Origin: Maylandia zebra
Taxonomy: Eukaryota; Chordata; Actinopteri; Cichliformes; Cichlidae
Assembly (NCBI RefSeq): GCF_041146795.1
Contig: NC_135177.1
Location: forward strand, 23,162,560-23,226,559
DNA: 64,000 nt
Direction: 5' to 3'
Under the pieces are notes generated by a model that saw nothing but the letters and a program-made list of their open reading frames with translations, was not told where the DNA came from and ran no database searches. Positions 10,971 through 40,206 of the stretch are shown here, piece by piece (position 1 is the stretch's first letter; each line of letters starts with the position of its first letter). The position numbers and the translations under genes were made by a program.

Positions 10971-11804
10971 CTTTTCAACAACTGAGCTAAACAAGCGCTC
11001 GGATTGTACCATTATCACTTTAACGGCAGGGGTGCGGATTGGATGTCAGTCTAAAACGATTCATTTCCATATTATCTGCATTTAACGCTGTGGCTCACTG
11101 TATTTTACTGAAAACTGTCGAGCAATGGACGTGAACCTTGAAATGCATATTTTTATACCCCAGTTAATGGTTGTCATTTCCAAATTGTCCAAATAGACTT
11201 TGAAACATTAAAAGAAGCTTTAGAGTATTTTTTTTTTCAGAAATTAAAAGTACAGTAATTACAGTATGCAGTGTAGTACGGTGTGTGCGATATTGAAAAT
11301 AAAAACAAACCCACAGCTTTGTGTCATTCAGTTACAATAACTCATACTGCGTACTAGCTAGCATGACGGAGTTTCTATACAGCTGGGTAGGTGCTATGAA
11401 GTTACTGATAGTGAACTTTTATTTTATTCACAAGGTTAGTTAGTAGAGAAAAACGGAATCGTCTCGTATTCAGAGAAAATATTACTCAATATTTGGTATT
11501 GAGCTGAATATGAATACAGTTTGTCCCGGACTTCAGCTACAATGAAAAAGACACAAAGCTGGAGTTTTTCTGTGTCTTTACGGTGCACAGCTGCCTCTTC
11601 TTCTCTCATTCTCTCTCCCTCCCTCTCCTGTTGCTACTTCAATCATGAAACTGATCAATGATCAGCTGATCGGCTTTTCTCTCTCGTTTGTTTATCGCCC
11701 ACTTTGCGCCAGAAAGAAGAAACCAGCGGATGTCGCGTTAAACAACAGCATCACATTTAAGCTTGATCAGCTGTTGTTAGAATGTATTTAATATTATTTT
11801 CTTA
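10971..11804. other. Intergenic, no gene seen
   Basis: Low-complexity, AT-rich sequence between the tRNA-like sequence and the fold-back element. It includes a pyrimidine-rich tract near 11590-11635 and palindromic TGATCA clusters near 11650-11675. I recognise no coding exon, RNA gene or transposon terminus. Confidence 0.5.
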
Positions 11805-11821
11805 CGGTGGCCCCTAGAGAC

Positions 11822-12050
11822 AAAGCACGTACAAACTCCAAAACACATGCAAATTCCAAAACACATGCAAATTCCAAAACACGTACAAATTCCAAAACAC
11901 TTGCAAAATCCAAAACACGTACAAATTCCAAAACACTTGCAAAATCCAAAACACGTACAAATTCCAAAACACTTGCAAAATCCAAAACACGTACAAATTC
12001 CAAAACACTTGCAAACTCAAAAACACATGCAAATTCCAAAACACAACGGA
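11822..12050. repeat. 18-bp tandem array, left arm of the fold-back element
   Basis: About 12-13 tandem copies of an 18-bp unit containing TCCAAAACAC, alternating mainly among CGTACAAAT, TTGCAAAAT and ATGCAAAT variants. Because 18 is a multiple of three, the array opens long frames on both strands (for example KTRTNS repeats). These frames are an artefact and not a protein. Confidence 0.95.
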
Positions 12051-14437
12051 AGTGCTCCAGGACGCTAGGGGCAGTGTTGAGCTTTTGTTACCTAGTAACT
12101 ACACAAGCCAGGAAGTACCAATGACCGGATTTGGGGTTTGCAGCCTTAAAGGCCGCATTTTAAGGCCGATTACGTCACAGCGACAAGAGAAGGCTTTCCC
12201 AATTCAAAGGCTGCTCGAAATGCGGCCCTCAAATGCGTCCATAATTTCCCTGAATTTTAAGGATGGGTCGGTGTAGCCTTCATGGCCCAACATATCCCAG
12301 ACTTCATAGTGCGGTGGTGGTGTGGATAATTTTGCCGAAAAAAAAACGGTGGAAGCGGAGCGGAGGAAGTGTAAACTTTCAGAAGTAAGTACTGAATATT
12401 ATGTCACTTATTTATGCGCAAATATTTTTTTAATGAAGAACATTAAACCATTATTGTTGGCCACATGTCGGGAAAGTTATGTGACATTAGTCATGTCTGT
12501 ACTTTCAGAATTAACTTGGTTTTAAAGCCTTTACTTTAAAAAAATATATATAGTCGACCTTAATCTTACAGAGATTGTGATGATTTTGTGGATAATTAAA
12601 GTCAGTCATATATCCACAAACACAACAAGCTGAAAGTCAGTGATGCTGCTCGGTTTGCAGTCCTGAATATCACAGCACAAGCAGGATTCACTGCACTGTT
12701 AATGTTAGCTGTGTTATATTGCTGCCTCTGTTCGGTGGTGTCGAGCCAAACGGACTTTAACGTGTGTTTGAACGAGCTGAAGGTTCACTCGTTAAGCTGA
12801 AAGAAAGATGCTTTAATCACAGGAGTCACACATGTGTGTCCACTGTACCATCTGGGAACTCCTCTTGTTTCGTAATAACACAAACACTAAATCCTCCTTC
12901 TTTTGTGCTGTTTTGTAGCAGTGTATACACCTGAGACTGTCACCTGTCTGTCTGTCCTGCACTCTCTCTGTTTCTTTCTCTCTGATTGTGTAATAAAAAT
13001 ATGAACATGTGTTTATAAGTCACACTTGTGTTTGAATCCTGCAGCTTATCACACATTTGATTTCCATGTGTGACGACTGCAAGTGTCCAGAGTGAGGACA
13101 GACTGAGGGACCCACTGCTGCACATCATCTGTGAGGCTTTGCACCCCTGATGATCCACCAGGACAAACTCAACATTGTGTGAGGAAGAGGAGGAGGAAGA
13201 GCCAGCAGCAGCTGACAGATGGAGAGAATAGACAGACTGTTCCCTGTTTGTGAAGGACTGCTAGAAAAGTTTAAAATAACTAATTGTCTGTCCTGAATCA
13301 GTCTTATTAGGTAATGTTCAAATAATTTTATCATTCCAGTGTTTTCAGTGTGGGAGAAAGTACTCAGGGCCTTCAAGTTACACACTATGAAAGGCAGCAA
13401 CAAGTGTAATATTCAGAAACCTAAAGTATGTATCAGCAGCAGAATGGAGCTAAAAACAAATGTTTGTTTCAGTTCTATGAAGCTTTGAGTATTTTGGATC
13501 AGTAGCACTGCTGTGTTTGTTGCATCATATTGCTGTAATTGTTTATATGCTTTATATATTCTGAGCTAAGTTGATCTATAGTGTTACATCATATTCTGTA
13601 AGGATGTTATGTGTTTGTTTACTTTCTGCCCAGTTTGACCCATTTAGCAGAAGCCAGCCTGTTTAAGGCTCTGATATCTATTCTGTATGACTTAAAGCAG
13701 TTATGACATGGTCTGATTTTCTCACCCAATAAAGGAATATTTCATATATCAGTCTACTCTTCATTTTATCAGAAACAGTTATCACAGCTTGTACATTTTC
13801 TTTTTATAAATATATGTAAGCAATGAGCCAAATTTAGTAATGCCAGCATGAAGGAACAACATTTGTCTCTTATATATGATACACCTATATATGCACTGTC
13901 AAAGATACTTGTCTTTGAGTGAAGATTTAAGGTGATAAGACATATAAATAACTGCAACTTGAATCTGTACTGAAGCTCAGTATTTGACACAGAGTTCATG
14001 TTCACTGCTGTAATAGCTAATAATGATTAATATAATAACTAGAATATTGGCCATATTATATTTACATTACCAAAGTGATATGACTTTAGTCTCATGAACA
14101 ACATCAGCTAATTCTTATTTACTAATTAATCTTGAAATGACTGTTCAGTACAGAAATGAAGCCCAAAAATCATGTTTTACTGTCCTGTGGTCTCAGCCTC
14201 AGATACTTATCAAATCACACAAAGCTCATGTAGAAACAAACAAACAAATGAACAAAATATGTTCTCCCTCATTTCTGTCAAACCAAGTTGTATGACACGT
14301 TTCCAGCGGTTAGTATCACGGTTGCTAGGCAACCTGGGAAGCGCGACGGAGACTAGACCGTCCCATACAGACAAACTTGCCGTTTATTTTGCAAATCGAG
14401 CTCAACACTGCCCCTAGCGTCCTGGAGCACTTCCGTT

Positions 14438-14866
14438 GTGTTTTGGAATTTGCATGTGTTTTTGAGTTTGCAAGTGTTTTGGAATTTGTACGTGTTTTGG
14501 AATTTGTACGTGTTTTGGAATTTGTACGTGTTTTGGATTTTGCAAGTGTTTTGGAGTTTGTACGTGTTTTGGAGTTTGTACGTGTTTTGGAATTTGCATG
14601 TGTTTTTTAGTTTGCAAGTGTTTTGGATTTTGTACGTGTTTTGGAATTTGCATGTGTTTTTTAGTTTGCAAGTGTTTTGGGTTTTGCAAGTGTTTTGGAG
14701 TTTGTACGTGTTTTGGGTTTTGCAAGTGTTTTGGATTTTGCAAGTGTTTTGGAGTTTGTACGTGTTTTGGAGTTTGCGTGTGTTCTTTAGTTTGCAAGTG
14801 TTTTGGAGTTTGCATGTGTTTTGGAATTTGCATGTGTTTTGGAGTTTGTACGTGCTTTGTCTCTAG
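14438..14866. repeat. 18-bp tandem array, right arm of the fold-back element
   Basis: About 23-24 copies of the reverse complement of the same 18-bp unit. It therefore sits in inverted orientation to the array at 11822-12050 and is nearly twice as long. Units with TTTAG in place of GGA recur in blocks, suggesting expansion by segmental duplication inside the array. Confidence 0.95.
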
Positions 14867-14875
14867 GGGCCACCG

Positions 14876-16401
14876 TACATCAGTCACATGATCACATTTA
14901 ACCAATGATCGCCCTTGACGGCAGAACGCGCTGGTTACGAGCCGGGAACGAGCTCACAAAGAGCACGCACATTTTTTGCGGTCCGGAGCTGCAGGAGAAA
15001 CACAAGTTAACTCAGAGACACAGACTTACTATATTTCTTCCATACAGACTGATGCCACAAAACCAGTAAGTAGGTGTACAGCGTACACTGTAGTGTGTAG
15101 CACCCAGGAGTATTATCTTATTACGTACACGTTGGTAAGCTGTCTTGTTGCAACTGACAAACGAGCGTGCTGTGTGTGCAACAGCGCGACAAACATTACC
15201 TGTCCTTTTATTAACTGCACAAGTAGTGCTGGTCATAGCTGCTGGCTACCTGTGTAAGGCTGTCATGGGTCTGTAGCTCTGTCACCGTTTTAGGGAACAT
15301 ATTTAGTTTTAAAGTATTTAGAACATATTTAGTTTTAAAGTAAGTTTCCGGGCTTTTCCTGCCTTTCTGGAGGGATTATATTTCACTAAAAAACGATCTA
15401 ATATTCATGTCCACATAATAATTATTATAATTATAATATATTAAAAAACACACGCTGTATTTTAAAGAACATACATTAAGAAGCAGATTATATTAGATTT
15501 ATATTTTAAATAAGACAAAAGTTGGATTTTACAGCAGTAAAATGATTGTATCTCTACAGTTTAAAAATGTAATAAGCTTTGCCCCTGCACAGAGTGGATA
15601 GTGAAACAAATGGAATCATCATAAATACATTATTTTATATTTATTACTCCCCCTCCTCTTTGCTTTATTATTGTAGCTCTAGTAATAAATAATAATGTAA
15701 GGATTCTGGATCAGCACCATGATGCCCATAGTATATACAGTATTCTGAAGAAGGTCTAAAATGTCACTTTGTGTGTGTGCATGTGTGTGTTTTATTTAGA
15801 TGGATTTTTAAAAAAAATATTACTCATGATATAACATTGTCCAGACATGCCTGGTAAGGACATGAGGAGGAAACAGAGCTGTGTGAGGCTACTAAAGGCA
15901 GTGCTATAACATTTTTCTCTCATCATTTTATTGTAGATTAAGTGCTGGAGTTGTTAGGTGTGGATGATTAAATTATAGTTTATTGCAATAGCAAGTTGTG
16001 CCTTGTTCTCACATAGCAAGTGGAGAGTGATATATGAAAAGATGGGATGGAAGGAAGAAGAGAAGCAAAGAGTGATTCACAGGCAGAGCCTAAGCGCTGT
16101 CACCAATCTTTGCATTTAGTTATTATCTCATGACACTTGTTTAATCAGCTACCATCTCTCCTATGGACTTTTTAATGTCTACAGTCTCAGATCAACACAG
16201 CCCTGCCCTCCAGCACTATCCACAGCAACCCCTCAACAGCAACATTGTACCCATCAGGTAAAACATCGGCTACGTTTGCTTTGCCTTGTTGCCCATATTA
16301 GATTCTTGATGAATGTGCGTTGTTGTTATTCAGCCTGGCTCAATGTGCCCCTTTTTAGCTTTAAGCACCCGCCCCTTTAAACCTCTCTGCACGGCCCTGG
16401 C
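14876..16401. other. Intergenic, one orphan exon-like segment
   Basis: No complete gene is seen. At 16185-16257 on the plus strand a 73-nt segment has a good acceptor (CTACAG before it), a donor (GTAAAA after it) and an open Ser/Thr/Asn-rich frame. No neighbouring exon could be linked to it. The rest is AT-rich with a few TG runs near 15770-15790. Confidence 0.4.
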
Positions 16402-17492: not shown

Positions 17493-18012
17493 CTGCCTTT
17501 TTGTCCAGCTTCTTTCTCTGTCTGGAATATGAGCATAGGCAACACAACCAAATACTTTCATATGGCTAATGTCTGGGGTTTTTTTCATACCATCTCTGAT
17601 AGGGTGTTTCGTTCTTTAAAGCAGATGTTGGGAGCTTATTCTGTATGTAAGCTGCAGTAGCAACAGCTTCTGCCCAGAATGTGTTTGGCAACTTTGCATG
17701 TGACAGCATGCTTCTAGCTGATTCCACTAGAGTTCTGTTTTTTCTCTCTGCAACACCATTTTGCTGTGGTGTGTGTGGTACAGTCATTTCATGGTGGATG
17801 CCTTGAGCTTTCAAATATTCTTGAAACTCTTTAGATGTGTATTCCCCACCATTGTCAGTTCTGAGTCTTATTACTCCCTGTCCACATTCATTTGAGAAGG
17901 TTCTTTCAAGCTCTTTGAACTTGCTCAGGACTTCTGTTTTTTCTCTTATGAAATACACTTTACAACATCTGGAGTAGTCATCAATGAAAGTCACAAAGTA
18001 CTTTTTTCCTCC
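17493..18012 (-). pseudogene. copia integrase core, frameshifted
   Basis: An integrase catalytic core with the three acidic positions in place: FIDDYSR (first Asp), RTDNGGEY (second Asp) and QQNGVAERKNR (Glu). The frame begins where the 8.4-kb element interrupts it, continuing the block that ends at 26449. Near 17580 an A/C run shifts the frame, so the following HMKVFGCVAYAHIP block is out of phase and meets a stop. Downstream the element is truncated. Confidence 0.88.
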
Positions 18013-18630
18013 TACCCAGATAGCAAGGAAACATTGAAACAATGTTGAGTCAATATCAGGTGATGTCATTGAATCAACGTTGAAGTGTGACGTTGACCTA
18101 ACGTCACTCTTGCACCCTTTTTTAACGTTGAAACGTCAGGTTTTGATGTTGAATCAATGTTGAAACCTGACATTGATTCAACGTTATATTTTCTAATACT
18201 GTTGACATTGAAACAATGTCAGATTCTGATATTGAAACACTGTTGAGCTATGGTGTTGATTTTCCACCTCTTTCGCACAGTTGCTTTTTATTAAAACAAC
18301 AGTTAAATCATGACTGGAAATCTACCTCTCTTTATAGGTATTTTAACCAATACTAAACTACTGCATGTTTCCATCAATACTTAAACCACCTAAACACATA
18401 ATTGTACTTATTCCTCAAATTGGACACCCTTTAAAAAAAAAACAAAAACCAAATGTCTCACAATGTATCATGTCAATATTAATATCCTAAAATAAGAAAG
18501 CATTGCATGTGATGTAACAGAGAAAAAACTAAACAAAAAAAGGTCAATAGGCATGTTTCGTTTGCTAAATACTTTATTAAAAGACAGTTTCCTATTTACA
18601 TTTATATGTTTCACAGAAGTTTGTAATTTT

Positions 18631-21269: not shown

Positions 21270-23265
21270 TCACTCACAATCCTGGCACTGCCATGGTATC
21301 TGTCGTCTGCATTTACCACATGTGTATCTGTAGCAGTGAACACATCGCACAGTGGCCTGATTTTTCTTGCATTTGTGTTTGACCTGACACGTGGCTCTTT
21401 TTCCAGGGCCAGGTGTGGAGGGTTGTGTCCAAAGCAACTGTTCTTTTCTTGCCTTCTTCGCAGCTACATGAGAGCGAGCCAACTCTGTTGCAAGCGCCAC
21501 CAGGAAGTCCACCCGTCTTTCCTTCGTCCCGGTGCATGCTTGATACAGCACATGTGCATTCAGTGCTGCCATGTCAATCATGTTATAAAACACGGCAACT
21601 GGCCAGCGCCGTGTTCCTTTGCGGACAGTGTACTCCCGAACCATCTGGTCCATCACATCCACGCCACACTTTGTTTTGTTGTAAAGGGTGACAGTGTTTG
21701 GCTTCCTTTTGGTAGTGTTATCAGTCTGAACCACGCTGTGCATGCTGCTAAGAATATAGACTGTCCTCTTCCGTTTGGCCGCATACGCCGTCAGCGTGGC
21801 AGCAGAGGTTGAAAACACCTAAGAAATAAGATAAATTGTTATTTCCATAGCCCTTTTACACACAATGAAACACATAAACATAGAACCACAAAAGACCTGC
21901 AACATACCTGAGTGGTGAATTCATTGCGATCTGTCTGTCTAGTGGATTGAGGAATTTCCCTGCGAATCTTGTTGACTGTGCCGAGGATGGTGGTTTTCCG
22001 TCCAAGAAGTTTTTGCGCAAGTGAAAGCGATGTGAAGAAATTGTCCGTGGTAACATTTCTGCCCTTGTCTAGGAATGGTTCCATCAGCCTCATCACTACA
22101 TCGTCAGACAGTCTCTCCCCACTGGGACGATTGGGGTCCTTGCCAAGATATGGGAAGACATTGCAAATGTACTTGGATTTTAGGTCGCAAGCCACCCAAA
22201 ACTTGATCCCAAACTTGTCAGGTTTACTTGCAATATACTGCAGGAAACAGCACTGAGTCTTTGATGGGAAAAGCTGTTCATCAACGGTGATATGTAGACC
22301 AGGGTTGTAGCACGTGATGCAGTTGGTGACAAATGATCCCCACACACTGGAAATTGCAGCGAATTTATCAGTCTTTGCTCGATCACAGCGGGTGGACTTG
22401 TCATCAAAGCGTAGGTGTTGCATGATGTCTTGGAAGCGGTTTCGTGCCATAGTTCCAATTATCTGTGGGTTTCCCAGGTTTGCTGACCAGCAGTCATTTA
22501 CAGATGGAACCCTGTTAACCCCCCGCAAGATGACAATTGCAATAAATGCCATTAGTTCAGGGAGGTCCATGAACCAATGAACATGCTCCGTTTGCTGTGC
22601 ATGTTGAATAGTCCATTCTTGAATGCTACGAAGCATGTCAAGAGTGATGAAACACAGGAAGCTCTGAAGGCGACTTGAGATACTTCTCCTGGCCTTAGCC
22701 GTTGGCTCTCCATCTGCAGCGTACGCTTCTATTGGGGTGAAAGGGAGACAGGTCCCCACCTGTTCTTCGCGCCACACTGTGCCATCTTTCGCTGTCTCAG
22801 TCCCCAAACAAGCTCTCTTTTTAGGTGGAGAAGCAGTCTCCTCATCTGCAGTGTGAACAAATTCAAATTGTGAGCAATGGGAAGGTCAAACAAAATCACA
22901 AATGCATGCATAGATACTAATTATAATTCCAGTATCTCCTCATCTGTATCAGAATAATGTCTGAAATATCTTACTTACTACATCCATTTACTTGTTTGAA
23001 ATGAAATAGGAAATGATATGAAATGTCTTCCTAAATAAAAAGAAACAACTAGAGTTAGGGTTACTAGCTAACCCTAATCCTGCTCTGCTTTTTTAGTATT
23101 TTTCACTTACTTGTTTGAAATGAAATAGGAAATAATATGAAATGAAACCTAACCTGAAGACTGATCAGACAGCTCCGAGTCCGAATCCGGCTGAAGTTGT
23201 AGGTCTTCTCCATCCGAGTCACAAGGGTTGACTTCACTCAGGATCATTTCCAAGGCCTGCTGCAT
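21270..23265 (-). CDS. piggyBac-type transposase (PGBD-like), intact
   Basis: Three exons, 23265-23154, 22845-21908 and 21818-21270, join in frame to 1599 nt (532 aa plus stop). The protein starts with an acidic segment and carries the DDE_Tnp_1_7-type core. Its three catalytic aspartates can be placed at D226 (HITVDEQLFPSK), D305 (NVTTDNFF) and D404 (GVDVMDQM). The WPVAVFYNMIDMAALNA helix and a C-terminal cysteine-rich zinc domain (CVHCYRYTCGKC) follow. Family enzymes cut and paste at TTAA via hairpin intermediates. No stop or frameshift was found and all splice borders are canonical, which is unusual inside such an old nest and suggests a recent arrival. Whether it is expressed is unknown. 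Confidence 0.9.
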
Positions 23266-26304: not shown

Positions 26305-26448
26305 GGTGTTCGCTGTGTCGAATCTAGCGTAGAATACGTTTTCAATGTTGTTTCAACATTGGTTTTGTGTTGATATTTCAATCCTGACGATTCTGATGGT
26401 TCAGATGGAAAATCAACATCTGTTCAATGTCTCCTTGCTATCTGGGTA

Positions 26449-27480
26449 GTGACTCAGTTTGAAAACGACCACAAACGTCACTATGCACTAATTGCAACTT
26501 GCGTTTTGTTCGTATTTCTCCCACTGATTTGTAAGGTTTTCTTGATAATTTGCCCTCAACACAAGCTTCACAAAAAATGTCCTCCTCTTCATTTGTAAGG
26601 CTAACTCCTTTTACCAAGTTTTTTACTCTTTTCAGATTTGTAGTGTGACCTAGGCGCTGATGCCACATACTTGCTGGAACTGAAGCAGTTGACGCTCCAT
26701 GACAGGTTGTGCAGTTTCCCTCAATATCCAGCTGATACAAGCCGTCAGATCTTTGTGTTCCCATTCTATGGAGAGCTCCATTCTTTCCTCTTATGTAGCA
26801 ATGAGTCCTTTTGAAATTCACTGTGTTTCCCTTCTTGGCAGCAGCTCCCACTGAGAAAAGGTTCATTGATAACTTGGGAACATACAGCACATCATACATT
26901 GTGGCATCTTTTCCATTACTAACTCTGAATGACATTTTCATTGTTATGTTGCCCAGACCTAAAGCCTCAACTACTCTGCCATCACTGAGTTTTACTGTTT
27001 GTGGTTCTGAAAACTCTTGGTAGTTCTGTAGAGCTTCTTTATTCCATGTCATGTGTTTTGACACTCCTGAATCAATTAACCATTCTTCTTGTTGTGCATC
27101 ACTTTTACATGACTCATTTACAACAAAAGCTCCCTCAAATGCGTCCTCTTTGTCCTTATACACCACGCTTTTAGCCTTGTGGGCCTTGTATTTCTTTTTA
27201 ATGCTTGGACAATCACGCTTGATATGTCCTTCCTTCCCATATTTGTAACATCTCCATGAGTCGGAGCTGTTTGCTCCCACTGTTTTTGATCCACTCTGTT
27301 CATTTCTATGCATCTGAGATGACATCGCTGATACACTACTGGACACAGTGGTGTTGTCAGTAAGCACTCGCTTTTGTTCCTCATTTATCAAGGCTTGTTG
27401 AACAAACTGTAGTGTCAGACTGTCCATCTTTGTCTCCAAAGCAGTAACAACAGTTGCATAGCTGGGTGGCAAACTACCTA
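26449..27480 (-). pseudogene. copia gag 3' part, protease and pre-integrase block
   Basis: This minus-strand frame continues from the gag segment beyond the hAT insertions. In order it shows a C-terminal gag region, a zinc knuckle, the protease active site WLIDSGVSKHMT, and a GAG-pre-integrase region (LWHQRLGH-like MWHQRLGHTTNL and CEACVEGKLSRKP) with the HHCC zinc residues of integrase. The knuckle reads CYKYGKEGHIKRDC: the second Cys of the usual CCHC set is Tyr, so zinc binding is probably lost. The frame is otherwise open until the 8.4-kb element cuts it. Confidence 0.88.
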
Positions 27481-27488
27481 GAAGGGTG

Positions 27489-28772
27489 TAGTGATGGGTC
27501 GTTCGCGAACGAAATGGCTCTTAGAGCCGGTTCTTTGACGTGAACGACGCGAGCCGGCTCCTTATCGCGAGCCGTCACGTGGGTTTTTTGTTTTTTTTTC
27601 TTTCTCTCAGCCTCTCTCTCGCACTTTTTTCCCGCTTCACTCTGCACGCGGGCCTTGTGCTTTACGCTGGGCAGAGGGGGGAGGGGCGGTAGTTACACTC
27701 AGTAGCACAGGAACAGAGCCAGAGAGAGAGAAAGAGAGGCAGGGACAACAACATTAGAAAGGTATAGTAATCATCCACAACTATTTTCGGTTGCAGATGA
27801 TAAAGGATTGAGAAAGTTTATTCATGCAGGTCCATATGACAGAGAATATGCATGTTCTTTTAGTTTTCATATTATAATTTATATTTAATTGTGTTGTGGT
27901 TTGCAGTGTTTTGTGTTCTTTTCACTTTAAATTTGTGAAAGGAAAAAGCTGAAAATTTAAATAGTTAAAACTTGAAATGTGAATAGTTGATTTTTGTACT
28001 ATATGATTTATTTATTACATTTTATGTGGAGTGAATAAATAAAAGTATATTTACGGTGGCCCCTAGAGACAAAGCACATACAAACTTCAAATCACGTACG
28101 AACTCTGAAGCATGTACAAACTCCAAAACACGTAAAAACACGTACAAACTCCAAAACACGTAAAAACTCCAAAACATGTAAAAACACGTACAAACTCCGA
28201 AGCACGTAAAAACTCAGAAGCATATAAAAACTCAGAAGCACATAAAAACTCAAAACACGTACAAAAGACAACAGAAGTGCTCCAGGATGCTGGGCGCAGT
28301 GTTGAGCCTTTGTTATCTTGTGGCTACACAAGCCAGCAAGTACCAACGACCGGATTTGGTGTGTGGTAATAACAGGTAAATGAACTTTTTTTTAAATTAT
28401 TTGAATATATATATGAGTGCCTGTGTATAAATACACAAACAATACACACATGCTTTCAATTGTGTAATTTAAGTGATCTAGTAGCTCTGCTTTGGAAGTT
28501 CAGTTCATGCTAGAAATGTGTTTTGGAGTTTGTACGTGTTTTGTCTCTAGGGGCCACCGCATATATTTATATATAAACATATATAAATAAAACCACTTGT
28601 TTTTACGTTAGTAATTCCTTTTGTGCATAATTTTATATTATTGTTAATAATAAATTAATTAAAGCAACAAAACAACCTGAAGAGCCGGTTTGGAGCCGAA
28701 AGAGCCGGCTCTTTTTAGTGAGCCGAACCGAAAGAGCCGGATCTCTAAAAAGAGCCGGAAATCCCATCACTA
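27489..28772. mobile_element. Non-autonomous hAT element
   Basis: Flanked by a perfect 8-bp duplication GAAGGGTG (27481-27488 and 28773-28780), the mark of hAT transposition. Its termini are TAGTGATGGG and CCCATCACTA. Near both ends it is rich in GAGCCGGCTC-type palindromes (27510-27580 and 28680-28760). There is no transposase frame. It carries a shorter nested copy of the fold-back-like element (28054-28559). Confidence 0.93.
28054..28559. mobile_element. Short fold-back-like element nested in the hAT
   Basis: A 506-bp relative of the element at 11805-14875. It has the same terminal sequence (CGGTGGCCCCTAGAGACAAA on the left, its complement on the right), diverged 15-18-bp repeats in the left arm, and the same inner block GAAGTGCTCCAGGATGC followed by the ACACAAGCCAG region. 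The right arm has shrunk to a single repeat unit. The left flank is TA and the right flank is CA, consistent with a TA duplication that later mutated. Its core is only about 200 bp. Confidence 0.8.
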
Positions 28773-28785
28773 GAAGGGTGACAAT

Positions 28786-30793
28786 TAGGGCTGGGACAAC
28801 GCGTCGACGTAATCGATTACGTCGACGCAAAAAATACGTTGACGTAAAAAAATCTGCGTCGATGCGTCGTCACTTTCAAAAAAAGACATGGCGGCAGCGA
28901 GTAGCGGAATCATGAGTGAGGCAGTTGCAGTCAACTTAAATCACTCCACCCGAACACGCAGTTCTACAGTATGGGGATATTTTAACAGAAAAGGAAGTGA
29001 TTCAGTCGTTTGCCGGCTTTGTGAGGTGGAAATGGCCTATCATAAAAGCATGACGGCTATGCACCAGCACCTCGAACGACGGCATCCAGGAGCAGCTTCT
29101 GCAAAGGACAAACCACCGTAAGTTTTCAACTTTTTTACTAACGCTAGTTTTTACCCGTTAATTCATCCAGACCGCCCCCCCCCCGTAGACGTACACTCAC
29201 TCATAGACACAGATAAACACCCAACCTCCGTAAATGCAAAACTCATTTAAGCTGCTGAGCAGTAACATATAGCAGCTGCTGTTGTTATTGTTTGTTTTTT
29301 TGTGGCCCATGCTGGCAAAATGAGTCTGAATGCACGCAGGCTGATTATCAGAATCGGCGAAAGACAAAAATGTGAGACAGCGAATTGGCCGCAGGAGAAA
29401 TGTTAACAAGGATAATGCACCACCTGCTAAACGTAGCCGTCGTGGACACTGTTACAACATTGTTAAAGTGCTTGCAAAAGCAAAATGACAATGAACTCTT
29501 GATTTGTCAAATTTAATGTGTTTCATCCTATTTGAATGCTGTTTTTATACATTATGCTTCTCCAGCTTGATCTTATAAGTCAAAGTTATGCCATCTAATG
29601 ACTAGAAAGCAGTGCACCAGTAAAGGTGCCATCAGCTATGGCTGTTTAAACATTATCTTTTCCAGCCATCATGATTACTGCATATCATATGTTCAACATT
29701 GGGGATTATTATTAACCTCTTACTGTTATGCTATGAAAGCACATGGCATAACAGTGTGTGTGTATCTATCTATCTAGCTCAACCAGATCCTTATCAAATT
29801 ATTTTGATATTATGCTTTCCATATAATTATTTTGTAATTATTTGAATTCATCTGTGCGCTGTGTGTGATTTATGATTTCAGGAATAAACAGAAAAGTCTG
29901 GAGGACTACTGTCAGAGAAGAAGTACACCATGCACCCCCCAGGAGGTGGCTGTACTTACTGAGAGCGTCTTAGCTATGATTTTAAAAGACAAGAGACCAC
30001 TTGCTGTGGGTGAGGGATTCAAAGAAATGCTGACCACTTTCCAACCAGGTTACACTCTGCCGTCTAGGCGTCATTTTACAAGCATGATGGAGAGAAAGTA
30101 TGAAACTTCAGTGGAGAAACTAAGGAATGAACTAAAAAAAGCCACATCCAAAATCTCCCTTACCACTGATGCTTGGACAAGTCTGGTCACAGAGTCCTAC
30201 TTAGGGGAAACTTGTCATTTCATTATTTGTTCAAAGACGCCATTGCTGCTGTTTGTATATTATTAATTTTTTGCTATGATTTCCTTTGTTATATTTGTTT
30301 TGCAAAACATTTAATTTTTTGTTAAAAACAGAAGATTGTAGTACAATGTTATTGTGGATTTTGTTTTGTGAAGGAAGAGCACTTTTTGGCAGAAAGCAAA
30401 GTGAATATTACATTTTGTTTGTTTAAAGACACCATTGTTGCTATTTATTTGAAATGTTTTGTTAACTTTTCCTTAATTTTATATATGTTTGCACATTTCA
30501 TTTCTTGTTAAATGCTATCTCTATTGTATTGATTGTACGACCTCTACAACTTTATTTTGCAATTTTTTTATTTTTTATTAAAAGGTCTTCAAATGAATAG
30601 ATTTGTGTTTTTCATTTATATACATAAATTAATAAATGTGAAATTGCTATACAAGTCAAATAATGGGGAAAAAAATCGTTAATCGAATCGAAATCGAATC
30701 GGATTGAAAAATGAATCGTTAGATTAATCGATGCATCGAAAAATTAATCGCTAGATTCATCGATTAGGAAAATAATCGTTTTGCCCAGCCCTA
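28786..30793 (+). mobile_element. hAT element with a BED-finger gene, catalytic domain missing
   Basis: Flanked by a perfect 8-bp duplication GTGACAAT (28778-28785 and 30794-30801). The ends are TAGGGCTGGG and CCCAGCCCTA, typical hAT termini. The 2,008-bp element encodes only the N-terminal part of a hAT transposase. Its subterminal regions are rich in TCGATTA/TAATCGA motifs, likely transposase-binding sites. It lies immediately next to the other hAT, and the two target duplications overlap by three bases. Confidence 0.93.
28888..30266 (+). CDS. BED zinc-finger, truncated hAT transposase
   Basis: Two exons, 28888-29117 and 29882-30266, with a GT donor and an AG acceptor, join in frame to 204 aa plus stop. 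The N-terminal half is a BED finger ([20 protein letters not shown], then HQHLERRHP) with the C-x2-C and H-x4-H zinc ligands. The second half resembles the region between the BED finger and the catalytic core of ZBED-like hAT transposases, ending near SLTTDAWTS, which normally carries the first catalytic Asp. The RNase-H core and the dimerisation domain are gone. It could make a DNA-binding protein without catalysis, or be a decayed leftover. The first ATG (MAAASS...) is the likely start. Confidence 0.72.
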
Positions 30794-30801
30794 GTGACAA
30801 T

Positions 30802-31236
30802 TTGATCTTCCTCTTCAATTACAGAACCTATTGCCCCTAGCTGATCAGTAAGTTCCTTCATCCTCTTTAAATGATCATTGAGATGTTCTCCTTCCTTCAT
30901 TTCACACCGGAAGTACTTCTTCAGAAATAGCTTGTTAGCAACAGTATCTCTTTCAAACTGTGCTTTTAGCATCTCCCATGCTTCTTTGGGGGTCTTACAG
31001 TTTGTTATCAAGTACAATTGGGGTGTACTTACATTCAGTACCAGCACTGAAAATGCCTTTTCTTTCTTCCGTTCAAATTCAGCTCGTGCTTGGGCATTAG
31101 CATCCGCAGCTAACTGCTCCGTCTCCTGTACCATACCCCACAGTCCTTTTGCCTTCAACAGGTGCTCCAGTTGAAATTTCCACGTTGCCCAATTCTCCGG
31201 TCCGCTCAGCTTGTCAATAAACAGTCTATCTTCCAT
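30802..31236 (-). pseudogene. copia gag, N-terminal part
   Basis: This minus-strand frame starts MEDRLFIDKLSGPENWATWK and shows the UBN2/Retrotran_gag_2-type pattern of copia Gag: LKAKGLWGMV, APKEAWEMLKAQF-like TPKEAWEMLKAQF, LFLKKYFRCEMKEGEHLNDH and LTDQLGAIG. It is open and ends at the border of the hAT at 30793; the frame continues beyond both hAT elements at 27480. Gag would form the particle that packages element RNA. Confidence 0.88.
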
Positions 31237-31302
31237 TGTGAATCCCACAATTCTGTTTATGACTCCCAAAAGAAACGTGTTAGCAGCTTCCCTTGGCGAC
31301 CT

Positions 31303-31316
31303 CTGGGCCCATAACC
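31303..31316 (-). promoter_or_regulatory. copia primer-binding site, complementary to initiator tRNA-Met
   Basis: The plus strand reads CTGGGCCCATAACC, identical to the anticodon-arm region of animal initiator tRNA-Met. The element RNA therefore carries its complement directly after the LTR. Use of an internal half of tRNA-iMet as primer is the mechanism known for Drosophila copia. Confidence 0.8.
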
Positions 31317-31418
31317 TGATGTTTTTAACGAACACCTTTTGAGTGTAATGCACAGACACACCAACAGAGGGCAGTAATATCCCTTCAACATACATTGTAA
31401 AATTACTATTACAACACA
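31317..31418 (-). repeat. Short 5' LTR of the copia element
   Basis: The region between the usp42-like exon and the primer-binding site is only about 100 bp. On the minus strand it begins TGTGTTGTAATAG and ends AACATCA just before the primer-binding site. No second copy was found, because the 3' end of the element is missing, so the borders are inferred. Confidence 0.6.
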
Positions 31419-31419
31419 T

Positions 31420-33378: not shown

Positions 33379-33873
33379 CTATAATAAAAAGATAAAGCAC
33401 AAAAGTTAACTAATAAGGACAGTGCAACAATTAACTGATTGACCATTTATTTTTTAGCATTTTGGAACCAGACGATCACTTTACAGTATTCAAGTAGCAG
33501 AAAAGACAATAGGAGGAATTGGAGCACGATTAATTACTTAAGAGGCCATCTGCTGCTACACGGGAAGAATTGATTTGATGAGAATTGACACTTTAGGTTC
33601 TTAAAAAAATAAATTAATTAATAAATTATTTTTAGGAGTCTAACAAGAAGCACAACACTCAGCCCAGTGCATCTGTTAAACGTGTAGTTTTGGTTAAATG
33701 TGCACATAGACTTCGAAGCTCTATCCACAGTATTTCTGATTTCGCGCCATTACCCCGATTCATAGCGGAAGCCGGTTTTTTACTTCCGCTTGCGCTGTTG
33801 TTGACAGTTGCGGGGTTACACCTTCACTGTTGATAAAGATTTCTCTCACTGCAGTTTGTTTTACCTGGAGTAA

Positions 33874-35991
33874 ATGGCAACACATCGAAGGTGGATACAC
33901 AGTAAAGATGTTTTAAAAAGCAGCGAGGACAGTTCAGTTGCAGTGCCTCACCCGTCACTTCTCACGGAGTGGGTAGATGACATGAAACTATGGCCCGATG
34001 TTAGCTACATCGACATTATTAATTACCTTGTATTTTCCGAAGGCGTTGATGGCGAGGAATTACGTAATTACAAGAGCACCGAGGCGTATAATTACCTGCA
34101 CAGCAACAAAATTGATAAAGTACTGCTCAACAAACAAGGCGACTTTATTTTTCTTAAAGCAGCTGTAGAGCCGAGCCAGAGTATTAATCAAGCGAAACAC
34201 TTAGCATGGGCAATGCTAAGAGAAAGTGGAGTAGTGGAGACAGTCGGCTGTTCCTGTATCGCCGGATTAGGGAGATCATGTAGCCATGCGGCTGCTATTC
34301 TGTGGAAGGTATATCACTTATCTGGATATCACAATGTTTAAATCACTGAAACAAACACTGGACTGGTCAAAGGCTGTGATTAAGGAGTCACGCTACTGCC
34401 ATCTAGCCAAGTATTACGTGGAGCACTGTTTACATGTGAAAGCCACTCGTTAACTTTGTGTGGGCTGTATGCTGTACAATCACATGAAGATAAAATATAA
34501 AAAAAATAAAAGACTGAACATTAAGGTCAAATTTACAAGACAAGAAAAACTATAGTTATAAGAAGTGACACAGAGTAGTATAATACATGTTTGTTTATAT
34601 GTATATTTGTACACACACACTACTTTGAAAAAAATTAGACTGTGGATGTATATTTCTGCATCAAAAAGTAACTGACTATTAATATGAAATGGATAATATG
34701 GGTGACTTTGCCAGTGTTTATATCTGTTTTGGATATGATTCAGGTGTATTGACCCAGGGTCATATCTATAACATGCAGGACACCAACCGTGTACTGCTTT
34801 TGTTAGTGTAAACTTCCTCGTTATGTTAAATCTTGAGTATTGACAGTGAGAAAAAACTATTAATATTTGTTACAGGTGCAGAATGCTGCGATCAGTGGAA
34901 AGACAGGGCTTGCGTGTACAGACGAGCAGCGCAGGTGGAATGCAGGGACAGCAAAGAACCTTGAACCTAAATGTCTAAGCCAGATAAACTTCAGACATCA
35001 CAGGGCAGAGCAGCAGTACGATGTGAACTCCCGGACTGCAGTGACACAATCTCTCCCTAACACACCATATCACCTTACACATCAAGACTTTATTGACAGT
35101 GTTAGCAAAGCACCAGTGAAGCCACTTTTCCTCCTCAAGAACACATTAATTGGAAAGTGTTACAATGCCTCACCATCTGCAGGTCCTCACCGCAACAGTA
35201 AAGTTGATGAGCAATTTTTTCAGCCACACCAAGCACACAGTTACAAACTAAGCTGTAATCCATGCAGGGCATTCTACCAGGCATACATTCAAGTTTCTGA
35301 AGAGCAAGCAGAACAATTACAAGAAGAAACAAAAGAGCAAAGTGCATCTGATTTGTGGCACAACTGCAGGAAAATCAGACTTACAGCAAGCTCTGCTAAA
35401 AAAGTTCCAGTACGTGCCACCACAAAAAATGACAAATTTTTATCTGAGCACATGTACCCTTCCTTTCGTGGGAATTATGAAACAAACTATGGTAAAGAAA
35501 ATGAAGTTAAAGCTTGTCATCAGCTGAAAGAACAGGGTATGAACATCCTTCACATGGGTAGTGTTATCAGCATCCAGGAGCCATGGCTCTCTGCGAGTCC
35601 TGACGGGGTCATTGACTCAGATGTGCTTCTAGAAATAAAATGTCCTGTGCAGACTTATCCTTCACTCACGGAGCAGCTTACCCAGAAATGCAGCGATATC
35701 AAACTGGTAGATGGAGAACTGCAGCTGCAGAAAACTGGCAGCAGAGGCTATTACATGCAAGTGCAACTTACAATGTTTTGCACAGGGCTCAAGACTGCCA
35801 CACTTGTGATCTGGACACCTACTGAGCATGTTTCATTTACAGTGCAATATGATGAAGCATTTGTAAAGGAACAAGTAAAACGCTTGAGAGGGTTTTACTT
35901 CTCATATTTCTTACCTCGACTTGTAGAGGAGTATGCAGCAGGACGGTTTCAGTTAAATGAGAGATACTTGAAGATAATGGGCAAGCTTTAA
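33874..35991 (+). CDS. SWIM-finger / YqaJ-like exonuclease protein of ISL2EU
   Basis: Two exons, 33874-34308 and 34876-35991, join at a GT/AG intron to 516 aa. Residues about 130-145 form a SWIM-type zinc motif (CSCIAGLGRSCSHAAAILWK). The C-terminal half is a YqaJ/lambda-exonuclease-type nuclease: KIRLTASSAKK near the domain start, then SPDGVI with D388, and LEIKCP with E398 and K400, the D...E-x-K metal-binding set. In ISL2EU elements this gene accompanies the transposase; its exact role in transposition is not settled, and end processing is an inference. All signature residues are kept and no stop occurs. The start ATG lies shortly after the terminal repeat. Confidence 0.88.
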
Positions 35992-36342
35992 TACATGTTA
36001 CAACTATAAATGGGACAGTCAGACACCAACATGTCTGCAGAGTTTGGTCTCTGTCTTGTGAATGAAAGGAGACATTCAATATGAAATCTGTTAAATATTT
36101 CAATACAACTAAAATGTACGTAGTTGTAACATATGGTGGGAAATGAATGACAAACTGACAACATTAAATGTTGTGAATAGTTCTGTATTTCTGTAATCTT
36201 CCAACACAAAAAAATGTCAAGAATGCACAACTAATTATTGTAGATTTGAGAAAAACATTTTTTTTTCATTTAAGAAATTTATCACATTGTGGTTGAATAA
36301 AAAAGTAATAATTGTTCAATTGATTGATTGCAATTGTTTTAT

Positions 36343-36380
36343 ATATACACATACATACATACATACATACATACGCACAC
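36343..36380. repeat. Short CATA/CA microsatellite
   Basis: A short run of CATA units followed by CA units between the two stop codons of the ISL2EU genes. Confidence 0.75.
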
Positions 36381-36561
36381 ACACACTGTATCACATAACC
36401 TTTCATCTAGAACACAAGATAAAAAAGTGAGACCTGGAATTATTTACTCTCTACATATATGTACATCAAATTTTAAAATAATTACATTACACTATGCAAC
36501 TTTATGTCCTGAGTAACCATCTTAATATCCCCGAGTCCACAATTGTTCATAACATACACAA

Positions 36562-38520
36562 TTATTGTGTATCACGAATGAGATCCTCTCTTAAGTTCAC
36601 TAGAGCAGCACATATTCTCAGTATCTTGTCTACTTTAGGAGCCATGCTTATAGGAACAATTTGTGAAAGTATTTTGTAGACTTTCAAGCGTCTGATTGCT
36701 CTTTCAACATGGATTCTTACATTTGCAATCCGACGTGTGTATGTTACCTGTTCCTCAGTTAGCTGTCTACGTTTTTTTGTGAAAGCGGGTATTACTAATC
36801 TAACTTTTCTCTCAAAGAGTAAGTCTTTAATTGTAAAACCTCTATCTGCCATGACTTCATCACCAGGTTTTAGGTATGTTAATATTCCAGAGTCCATTGT
36901 GATAAATTTGTCACTACATCGGCCGCCATATGCCGCAGACACAAACATGATTAGTCCACATGGTGCAACAGCAACCAAATATTTGACTGTGTTGTGTGAA
37001 TAATAATGGCTGTATGATTCCCCTCTTGAGCCCAGATTTCTGGGTTTCTGTAAAAGGGTCTCACTGCAGTCTATAATGCATGTACTATTTGGAAAGTTCT
37101 TCTTGAAGGCTTCAGGCATAGTTGCTTGAATAGTTTCTTTTGGCAGCCATGGAATTAATGGTCGGAGAACTTCCTCCAGCTTGTCTAACCAGTGTGAGAT
37201 GATCTTGCTGGCCATGCTTTGTGATATATGAAACTGGCGGCTTAGGTCACCTATTACACGGTTACTCTTTAATTTCATAAGTGTCATGAGGACTTGATCT
37301 CGGACAGGCATGGTAAATTCATTGTTGTCATATCCTTCCAGTGTCGACACAAGTGTGTTAAATGTTTCTAAGGCTATCCCAGTGTACAGCAAAGCGTCTG
37401 CATCATTTTGAAGAATGAAATATGCAACTTCATCACACTGAGTCATCTTATCCTGCACATCTTTTCTGCGAGACCTGTTGCAGTATTGATGGTCTTGTTG
37501 CGAAGGATCCTCCCACTGTGTGTGGACTGAGTGCAGATGTGGCTCAGGGGGTTGTGTGGAGATGCTGGCCTGGTCTAATTCCACTGAACGTAACACTGTG
37601 GAGTCTGAATAAGACAAAAATATGATCAGATGTACAGTCAAACTGTTAGCATAAGAGAAACTGTAAAGTGTCACTTAGCTTATTATATTTGAGTGAAATT
37701 TCTCATTCTACATTTTTTCACACAAATGCAAAATCATAAATGTCAACATAAAATGTTCCTAAGTCCCCTAAAAATTTGTCACAATTTTATTCAATTAATG
37801 TGATTAGATTTTATTTTACATTCTAAAAAAAGTCACAACTGTTGGTATTTTGCAAAGGTTGCCTTTAACTTTTTTACTTGAGTTTTCTCGACTTGAAAAA
37901 ACATGTTCTTTATAAACACAAACCTAAGACTTTTACAGCCCTTGGAGCTAATCTTTTGGCATTATTATTATTATTATTATTATTATAAACTTTCGTTAAA
38001 ATTTAGACTTTGCTGCTAATAACCAGCTAGTGCTGATACTAACGCCATTCACCATAGGCTATTATTTAGTAAAAGTAAAGAATTGCGTGTTTAAAATGCG
38101 AAACGGTGGCAAACCACATTTACACTTTCACTTACCGGGTACAGATTCTGTGTTTTTGTTCGTATTACTGGAAGCTGTCACACTCAAAGTGGTCCGAGTG
38201 AGCCTTCTTCTTTTCTTCGGTGGGGGTCGGTCATAGCCCAGATAAAGCTCCGGGTCGGGGTGTAGCTCTGTGGGCTTTTTATCGATAAAATGAAAGGAGC
38301 AAACATAAACTCTCTTTGGAGGGTGTTTGAGTCTTAAAGCTGCCAGCCACGCCAGTTTCCGATCCTCCTTCCGCGGCATAGAGTGCAGTGCGTAGGGCGG
38401 TGGGCACGGACAGGCCTTTCTAAGTTGTTGATGCTCAAGACAAAATGTTTCTAATGCGTTTTTCAGTTTTCTTGAATTATTGTGGCAGCCGACGACAGCA
38501 CACGTTGAACCCGAGCTCAT
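36562..38520 (-). CDS. THAP-domain DDE transposase of ISL2EU
   Basis: Two exons, 38520-38136 and 37604-36562, join in frame to 475 aa plus stop. The N-terminus carries a THAP-like C2CH zinc module (CAVVGCHNN ... VYVCSFHF) for sequence-specific DNA binding, followed by a basic KKRRRLTR stretch. After a helical region with a helix-turn-helix look (IGDLSRQFHISQSMASKII) comes a DDE_Tnp_4-type core. It has D307 (CIIDCSE), D382 (MADRGF) and E429 (RIHVERAIRRLK), all three metal-binding residues. The gene is convergent with the YqaJ-type gene. No disruption was seen, so the element may be able to move. Confidence 0.9.
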
Positions 38521-38684
38521 CTTCGAACAGGTAAAGCCACTTATTACCGCACAAAGTAACTGATTTTGTTGTTAGCAACGACTGAACGCTGGGTCTCGCT
38601 TTGAGTAACCGGAAGTATAAAACCGGACAACGGAAGTAGTGGTCTGTCATGGCAGCCTACGTACGCTCTTACAGAAACCTGTGG

Positions 38685-39404
38685 ATAGTAACACATAGAA
38701 AAACCTGGATTTTCTGAATTTTGCTGCTGCAATAATAGCACGAATGCCATTAGGGTGAATAAGAGATGACCTGAGGGGTTGAGTGCTCCTGCTCAAACTG
38801 CTTACCCTGTTGGCTCAGAAGAAATCTATCTGATTGTTAAGTGATGACGTGACGAATCCTACTTCCGGGCCTAAAGTAGTCTGCGTTTAATATGGCTTTT
38901 GTGTTGTTAACATGTTTAATGTTTTGTATTTTCTTCTATTTGATCTCAAAAAGCTCCTAAAACAGTCAGTGATCCCCGTTGACCTCCCTCGGCTTTTATT
39001 ACCGCTAATCATTTATTTAAGCTCAGTTTTTAAAACCTTAGGATGTAACTACAGCCCAGCCCATGCAGCAGTATATGAATGACTAACCTCGTATTGTGGA
39101 TGGATTATCTCAGTTGTTCTCCTGGCTGAAGTTTGGTCCTTTTACAGCATCCTGCCATGCGATTACATTTGTTCCTGACCACCGAGAAAACTCACGTTAA
39201 CTTTTATCGAGTGGAAAAAAAGTTAGCTTGTTTATATTATGCTAACATAGCTGTGTCGCTAGCGGTCACGTAGCACATCATTATATACCAGCTAGCCCAA
39301 CTTCAGTAACCCTACAAACGTCACTGCTGTTTAGTTTTCTGTCTTCATTTATGTTGGAAGTGATAGCAGAGCTGTACGTTTTAATTTGTTTCCAAAACCA
39401 AATT
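38685..39404. other. Intergenic, no gene seen
   Basis: Unremarkable AT-rich sequence between the ISL2EU element and the next fold-back remnant. No splice-linked open frame, RNA gene or transposon end is recognised. Confidence 0.5.
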
Positions 39405-39699
39405 TGTGTTTTGGAATTTGCATGTGTTTTTTAGTTTGCAAGTGTTTTGGATTTTGCAAGTGTTTTGGAATTTGTACGTGTTTTGGATTTTGCAAGTGTT
39501 TTGGAATTTGTGCGTGTTTTGGATTTTGCAAGTGTTTTGGAATTTGTACGTGTTTTGGAATTTGTACGTGTTTTGGAGTTTGCATGTGTTTTTTAGTTTG
39601 CAAGTGTTTTGGAGTTTGCATGTGTTTTGGAATTTGCAAGTGTTTTGGAGTTTGCAAGTGTTTTGGAGTTTGTACGTGCTTTGTCTCTAGGGGCCACCG
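39405..39699. mobile_element. One-ended fold-back-like remnant (18-bp array)
   Basis: About 15-16 copies of the 18-bp TGTTTTGGAATTTGCANG-type unit in the orientation of the right arm of the 11.8-kb element. It ends in the same terminal sequence (TTTGTCTCTAGGGGCCACCG) followed by TA. There is no matching left arm or inner block nearby, so this is a solo arm, perhaps left by deletion. The open frames it makes on both strands are not genes. Confidence 0.85.
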
Positions 39700-40206
39700 T
39701 ACTTTCTAGTATCAGCTGATGTTTGAAACATGAAGATGAAACCAGGAGATGTCCTTACTGAATCATCAGAGCTGAACAGATGATGGAGAAACAGGTTTAC
39801 CTTTTAGGTGACATGAATGAGTTGAAGGGAAGTTATGAACTGTTTCTGAGAGACAAATAACACCAGGATCCTTTTCTACAGCTGACAGCTGGCAACTGTG
39901 CAGGGGCGGGTCTAGCAAAACTTTGTCAGGGGGGCCAGGTAGGGCATTAACAGGGAATCTTACAACCAAAGTTTTCATCTGATGTAAAATGTATAGAAAT
40001 CATACATATACTAACAAGACAGTGTACATCACTGTTACAACAGCGTTTGTTTTCATTCAAAGGCTTTATGGCTTTTCCTATAATACCTGGCCAATTTTAT
40101 GTTTCTTTAAGCAAGTTCTTCATGACTGAGCCAAGTGTCCTCTTTTTTGGAAATCAAAATATGGTCACCCTACTTTAGATGCCACTAAAAGCGAAAACAT
40201 TTAAAG
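39700..40206. other. Intergenic, no gene seen
   Basis: Between the solo fold-back arm and the hAT MITE. No gene or RNA is recognised; the last 8 bases (40199-40206) are the left copy of the MITE target duplication. Confidence 0.5.

What the first reader, a model, noticed from the sequence alone, without database searches (positions are those of the whole stretch)
11805..14875. Fold-back-like transposon family whose inverted ends are 18-bp satellite arrays
The two arms are inverted copies of the same architecture: a 20-bp cap (CGGTGGCCCCTAGAGACAAA), an array of an 18-bp unit, then an inner block shared by both arms. The arrays differ in length (about 229 and 429 bp). A TA flanks each end. Two related copies in the same window (28054-28559 and 39405-39699) differ mainly in repeat number and core, so this is a family. 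Long tandem-repeat inverted ends recall Drosophila FB elements; I know of no described teleost family with this unit. It may also seed satellite DNA.
Basis: partly seen in the sequence, partly recalled or inferred. Interest (0 to 1): 0.75.

Follow-up and report, generated by a model that had tools for sequence, protein, structure and literature searches.

The report
Jumping DNA with satellite-like inverted ends
In what looks like a fish genome, a family of passive jumping genes, repeated hundreds of times, has ends made of short tandem repeats pointing at each other; its end letters and insertion marks fit the IS3EU class of transposons, which makes it a fold-back-style version of a known class.

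Summary
The 20-bp cap occurs five times in the window without mismatch; two inverted arms of 18-bp units (12 and 23 full units) enclose a 2.3-kb core at 11803-14877. The window's own genome (962 Mb) holds 756 exact copies of TACGGTGGCCCCTAG and 16 full-length copies of this core (its own included) at 95-100% identity: a recent, dispersed family. The flanking TA is not the target duplication; it belongs to the element. Outside it lie 6-bp duplications: 9 of 14 distinct elements match at 5 or 6 of 6 bases, against 1 of 132 mismatched pairings; 13 of 15 empty sites favour 6 bp over TA. TACGG..CCGTA ends plus 6-bp duplications are the published signature of IS3EU transposons, not of Tc1/mariner. 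The second window copy rides inside a hAT-like element, which multiplied it. The third is a solo arm. The main window copy lacks a duplication and may be a recombinant (inferred). No autonomous copy was found, so its transposase is inferred. It works like fold-back elements but has another duplication length: a new variant of a known kind. Repbase and Dfam could not be searched.

The parts
11797..11802 (+). 6-mer outside the left end of c1 (TTTTCT); does not match the right one
11803..11820 (+). c1 left terminal inverted repeat TACGGTGGCCCCTAGAGA
   Evidence: 5 exact caps in window; 756 copies of its first 15 bases in the genome
11821..12036 (+). c1 left array, 12 full 18-bp units
12037..12083 (+). 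c1 left inner block (partial unit plus CGGAAGTGCTCCAGGACGCTAGGGGCAGTGTTGAGC)
   Evidence: identical to the right arm; the block follows the array in 23 of 29 arms parsed
12084..14398 (.). c1 core; no transposase among the 10 ORFs scanned; 16 full-length copies of 12330-14380 (own included) at 95-100%
14399..14445 (-). c1 right inner block
14446..14859 (-). c1 right array, 23 full 18-bp units
14860..14877 (-). c1 right terminal inverted repeat
14878..14883 (+). 6-mer outside the right end of c1 (CATCAG)
28046..28051 (+). left 6-bp target duplication of c2 (TATATT)
28052..28561 (+). c2: short family member, degenerate left array, right arm of one unit plus a partial one
28562..28567 (+). right 6-bp target duplication of c2 (TATATT)
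27489..28772 (.). hAT-like element (TAGTGATGGG..CCCATCACTA, 8-bp duplication GAAGGGTG on both sides) that carries c2; hAT label recalled from end type
39406..39701 (-). c3: solo arm, 15 units plus cap and TA, no inner block and no second cap found

Best explanation
A non-autonomous cut-and-paste DNA transposon family of the IS3EU type. Its ends are TACGGTGGCCCCTAGAGA, then an array of 18-bp units, then a 36-bp inner block, inverted at the other end. A DDE transposase supplied in trans (inferred: an IS3-type integrase-like enzyme) recognises the ends, perhaps through the repeated units, cuts the element out and inserts it with a 6-bp staggered strand transfer (the duplication is shown, the enzyme is inferred). 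The arrays grow, shrink and are evened out between the two arms by slippage, unequal exchange or conversion (variation and within-element similarity are shown, the mechanism is inferred). Some copies may be recombinants between elements (inferred from missing duplications), and one lineage was multiplied as cargo of a hAT-like element (shown by shared flanks and empty sites).
For: 756 exact copies of TACGGTGGCCCCTAG, reversed-pattern control 0 and 1; 473 copies of the 24-mer of cap plus first unit, control 0; 730 of 756 have the array's C at one tested position. 16 full-length core copies (own included) at 95-100% among 40 candidates scored of 2050. 6-bp duplications: 7 of 12 distinct elements at 5-6 of 6 bases, against 1 of 132 mismatched pairings; two further pairs, picked from the list by coordinates alone, both perfect, GCCCTG and AAAGAG; one more has 5 of 5, one 6 of 7. 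Empty-site test: of 15 uninserted hAT-like copies 13 fit the 6-bp model better, 1 the TA model, 1 tie; some of the 15 are near relatives. Published IS3EU traits: TA..TA ends and usually 6-bp duplications (PMC10045372, passages); TAYGG..CCRTA ends (PMC12730594, passage). rva_4 integrase genes with long open frames occur in this genome. Arms of one element resemble each other more than arms of different elements (10 elements, 0 of 5000 permutations).
Against: No copy with these ends and a transposase was found. The closest rva_4 match lies 37 kb from any of the 226 cap rows compared (100, 100, 26, partly the same caps); the first two lists stop at C5 and C3. The one rva_4 locus read (3.5 kb) showed no such ends. 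That rva_4 is the IS3EU enzyme is recalled. Three of 14 elements, c1 among them, show no duplication. One empty site (L041) fits TA better, and the tract is AT-rich. Likeness of the ends to catalogued IS3EU sequences was not testable.
Confidence: 0.75

Rival explanations
1. A TA-inserting Tc1/mariner-like or pogo-like non-autonomous element, with TA as the target duplication.
For: TA flanks 4 of 5 window ends. A pogo/Tigger transposase lies near one copy, L025. One of 15 empty sites fits TA better.
Against: 6-bp duplications outside the TA; 13 of 15 empty sites; the pogo element has its own ends, TACCGTATTTTCACGACCATAAG, around its gene.
Confidence: 0.05
2. A hAT-type family with 6-bp duplications (hAT6), or another superfamily with 5-8 bp duplications.
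For: hAT5 and hAT6 groups make 5- and 6-bp duplications (PMC12730594, passage).
Against: The TACGG..CCGTA ends match the IS3EU motif; the hAT-like ends seen in the window are TAGTGATGGG. hAT6 ends were not compared.
Confidence: 0.12
3. c1 is a recombinant: its left half came from one insertion and its right half from another, through ectopic exchange between elements.
For: Outer 6-mers TTTTCT and CATCAG do not match. Chimeric Galileo copies lack matching 7-bp duplications in the same way (PMC3573991, passages). An end with CATCAG outside exists at C17:38576028.
Against: The pattern allowed 32 flanks and gave 5 hits where about 6 are expected by chance (my arithmetic); for CATCAG alone about 0.18 are expected; the other predicted flank, AGAAAA, was not found. 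c1's arms resemble each other (0.82). A deletion beside one end would look the same.
Confidence: 0.45
4. c3 is the right end of the ISL2EU-like element at about 33.7-38.7 kb, making this an ISL2EU family.
For: THAP, DDE_Tnp_4 and YqaJ genes lie just upstream of c3.
Against: That element has other inverted ends (CTATCCACAG..); no left cap was found; ISL2EU makes AT duplications with ends usually starting GG (PMC4482050, passages).
Confidence: 0.02

Closest known systems
IS3EU / GingerRoot superfamily
   Same: TA..TA ends, TAYGG..CCRTA motif, usually 6-bp duplications (against 64, 86)
   Different: No transposase seen in the copies examined; ends carry 18-bp tandem arrays, which the passages read do not mention
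Drosophila Foldback (FB) elements
   Same: Long inverted ends built of short tandem repeats of varying number (recalled)
   Different: Duplication length (9 bp in FB, recalled) and end sequence
Tetris of Drosophila virilis (PMC4079207)
   Same: Non-autonomous, with inverted ends made of a flanking part, internal tandem repeats and an inner domain; repeats expand towards satellite (passages)
   Different: 220-bp units and 8-10 bp duplications there; 18-bp units and 6 bp here
Galileo (P superfamily; PMC3573991)
   Same: Arm length varies through internal repeats; chimeric copies without matching duplications (passages)
   Different: 7-bp duplications, about 210-bp internal repeats and a P-type transposase there

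Membership tests
IS3EU/GingerRoot | TA..TA ends with TAYGG..CCRTA | tested here: met
   TACGG..CCGTA; T in 69, A in 57, C in 61 of 71 caps read; 756 exact TACGG.. ends; motif
IS3EU/GingerRoot | 6-bp target duplication | tested here: met
   9 of 14 distinct elements at 5-6 of 6 bases, 11 of 14 allowing 5-7 bp, 3 of 14 none; control 1 of 132; empty sites 13 of 15
IS3EU/GingerRoot | IS3-like DDE transposase between the ends in an autonomous member | tested here: inconclusive
   none recognised in the copies examined; rva_4 genes in the genome, none within 36 kb of the compared caps
IS3EU/GingerRoot | first 11 bp align to a catalogued member with at most 1 mismatch (Repbase rule, PMC4455052, passage) | not testable with these tools
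   Repbase and Dfam are not available here
Tc1/mariner | TA target duplication | tested here: not met
Drosophila Foldback (FB) | inverted ends of tandem repeats | tested here: met
Drosophila Foldback (FB) | 9-bp target duplication (recalled) | tested here: not met
ISL2EU | AT duplication, ends usually starting GG (PMC4482050, passages) | tested here: not met
Dada | no terminal inverted repeats; inserted in small RNA genes (PMC3706591, passages) | tested here: not met
   has inverted ends; no Rfam or tRNA match in the window
hAT6 | 6-bp duplication with hAT transposase and hAT-type ends | tested here: inconclusive
   length fits; ends and enzyme not comparable here

The most novel reading that the evidence does not exclude
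IS3EU-type ends have independently evolved the fold-back plan in a vertebrate: the 18-bp units act as repeated transposase-binding sites, arms are kept alike within each element, the arrays promote exchange between distant copies (giving chimeric elements such as c1), and they expand into satellite-sized arrays.
Probability: 0.3. Interest if true: 0.65.

Novelty: new variant of a known kind. Interest (0 to 1): 0.5.

Why it matters
Fold-back ends are best known from flies. Here several hundred ends, many of them young, sit in one chromosome-level genome on what appears to be a superfamily with a different, integrase-like enzyme. Convergence of end design, arrays as binding sites, exchange between copies and the birth of satellites become directly testable. 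It also shows how a TA beside inverted ends can mislead classification, and how one mobile element can be multiplied as cargo of another.

Tried and rejected
Rejected: TA as target duplication; c3 as an end of the ISL2EU-like element; the pogo transposase in L025 as source (own ends; 98 scored matches); the 16.5-kb pair L021/L022 as autonomous copy (a c1-type core interrupted at one point by about 13.4 kb; its two longer open frames outside the arrays have no Pfam match); the Tc1-like frame inside L026 as source (Tc1 by eye, recalled; it lies between two parts of the core). Weak Pfam matches in the core (E6, GAPES4, Gig2-like, AAA_lid_7) are below their cut-offs and taken as chance.

Led nowhere: exact cap, inner-block and unit scans of viral contigs and cap and inner-block scans of prokaryote genomes, plasmid and phage BLAST, sequence strings in papers, Rfam and tRNA scans, a first exact empty-site pattern (0 hits; the joined-flank search then found 15), rva_4 relatives in viral contigs. 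Not answered: the count of c2-in-hAT junctions. One search stopped with an error in its last part; redid that part.

Left out of counts: L005 (same flanks as L004, inverted), L006 and L008 (same hAT site as c2) were shown but left out of the 12. L011, L012, L015, L017 and L019 overlap other loci. One search scanned 10 of the 26 frames listed (array frames and some shorter ones were left out). Frames of other copies were judged by eye at 90 aa or more in 14 loci. In one search the left arm of L003 was cut at a fixed length because its inner block was not found.

Full report
What is there. At 11803-14877 an element (c1) is bounded by TACGGTGGCCCCTAGAGA in inverted orientation. Inside each end lies an array of 18-bp units (12 full units left, 23 right) and then an identical inner block. 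The cap occurs five times in the window without mismatch, with none in 100 shuffles. c2 (28052-28561) has a degenerate left array and a right arm of one unit plus a partial one; c3 (39406-39701) is a solo arm of 15 units, and no partner cap was found.

Scale. The window lies in a genome of 962,127,851 bases in 63 contigs. The 24-mer of cap plus first unit has 473 exact copies with 0 in the reversed-pattern control; TACGGTGGCCCCTAG has 756, controls 0 and 1. 26 of the 756 lack C at one fixed array position, a one-base proxy which, with the 473, says that most of these ends carry the array. The core 12330-14380 has 16 full-length copies (own included) at 95-100% among 40 candidates scored of 2050. 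I read 40 loci, chosen from the 100 places listed of 473; 5 of them overlap others, and L021 and L022 are two ends of one pair, which leaves 34 distinct places.

Two lineages. 19 of the 34 places have the hAT-type flank beside a cap; 14 of these 19 plus the window copy were aligned and share the insertion site, some with one truncated flank. In the window the carrier spans 27489-28772, with TAGTGATGGG..CCCATCACTA ends and the 8-bp duplication GAAGGGTG on both sides; the hAT label is recalled from these ends. So c2-type copies were multiplied mainly as cargo. L025 has a c2-like left end with other flanks. The remaining places are mostly c1-type: different surroundings, the same core in whole or part, arms from 1 to about 120 units.

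Target duplication. The TA beside each cap looks like a mariner footprint but is not. A search with the joined hAT flanks found 15 uninserted relatives among 40 scored of 2005 candidates. 13 of the 15 fit one TATATT (6-bp model) better than the TA model, L041 fits TA better and L048 is a tie; several of the 15 are near relatives, and a substitution and a 1-bp indel remain in most. The tract is AT-rich, so other sites matter more. Of 12 distinct elements with both ends, 7 show matching 6-mers outside the TA at 5 or 6 of 6 bases, against 1 of 132 mismatched pairings. L004 has 5 of 5, L021/22 6 of 7. Two further pairs, picked by coordinates alone, have GCCCTG and AAAGAG, both perfect. c1, L002 and L003 show none. 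Thus 9 of 14 have a 6-bp duplication and 11 of 14 one of 5-7 bp.

Classification. IS3EU families have TA..TA ends and usually 6-bp duplications (PMC10045372, passages read); a fungal set ends with TAYGG..CCRTA (PMC12730594, passage read). The present ends, TACGG..CCGTA, fit. Dada has no terminal inverted repeats and targets small RNA genes (PMC3706591, passages). ISL2EU makes AT duplications with ends usually starting GG (PMC4482050, passages). hAT6 makes 6-bp duplications and remains a rival, because I could not compare ends with Repbase.

Transposase. Ten frames of the c1 core have no Pfam match above cut-off. In 14 other loci, frames of 90 aa or more showed by eye only a Tc1-like frame in L026 and a pogo frame in L025; the pogo frame was confirmed by Pfam and has its own ends. 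The rva_4 integrase family, which I recall as the likely IS3EU enzyme, has 161 matches in the genome, many with long open frames. The closest lies 37 kb from any cap compared: 100 rows, 100, 26. The lists cover only the first contigs, so an autonomous partner elsewhere, or one with diverged ends, is not excluded.

Arrays. Of 29 arms parsed, 25 begin with the same first unit and 23 end at the inner block; the parsing broke at small indels in some of the rest. In 10 elements the arms of one element resemble each other more than arms of different elements (mean 0.80 against 0.57; 0 of 5000 permutations; L027 and L039 are near relatives). L023 has an arm of about 120 units with no cap found at its outer end; L027 has about 70 and 50 units.

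c1 itself. Its outer 6-mers differ (TTTTCT and CATCAG). Chimeric Galileo copies show the same sign (PMC3573991, passages). A search for partner ends found one cap with CATCAG outside (C17:38576028) and none with AGAAAA; the pattern gave 5 hits where about 6 are expected by chance, so this is a lead at most.

Known or new. Fold-back elements with repeated ends are known from flies, and Tetris is a close structural parallel that seeded a satellite (PMC4079207, passages). In the searches made I saw no report of this unit or of an IS3EU family with such ends. Most of those papers I saw only in the listing, and Dfam could not be searched. I therefore file it as a new variant of a known kind. On checking, the confidence for c1 as a recombinant went from 0.5 to 0.45, because the chance expectation had been given for one flank only.

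Noticed in passing
window 33720-38690: ISL2EU-like transposon by gene content: YqaJ (+ strand), THAP and DDE_Tnp_4/HTH (- strand), inverted ends with CTATCCACAG; its AT duplication was not seen.
   Followed up: partly
window 21270-22885: piggyBac-type transposase in two frames (DDE_Tnp_1_7; piggyBac label recalled).
   Followed up: no
window 17566-18135, 26438-27520, 30757-31419: Copia-type gag and integrase pieces on the - strand, perhaps one element split by insertions that include the hAT carrying c2.
   Followed up: partly
L025 4163-5440: Intact-looking pogo/Tigger transposase with 98 scored genomic matches and TACCGTATTTTCACGACCATAAG ends.
   Followed up: partly
L060 375-2322: rva_4 integrase-type transposase pieces; equal top scores on several contigs suggest recent copies.
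   Followed up: partly
window 12087-12099 and 14321-14333: Near-palindromes GTTACCTAGTAAC and GTTGCTAGGCAAC close to the inner blocks resemble X-box (RFX) motifs (recalled), perhaps promoter remnants.
   Followed up: no
L023 3785-5944: One arm expanded to about 120 units (2.16 kb), satellite-sized, without a cap found at its outer end.
   Followed up: partly
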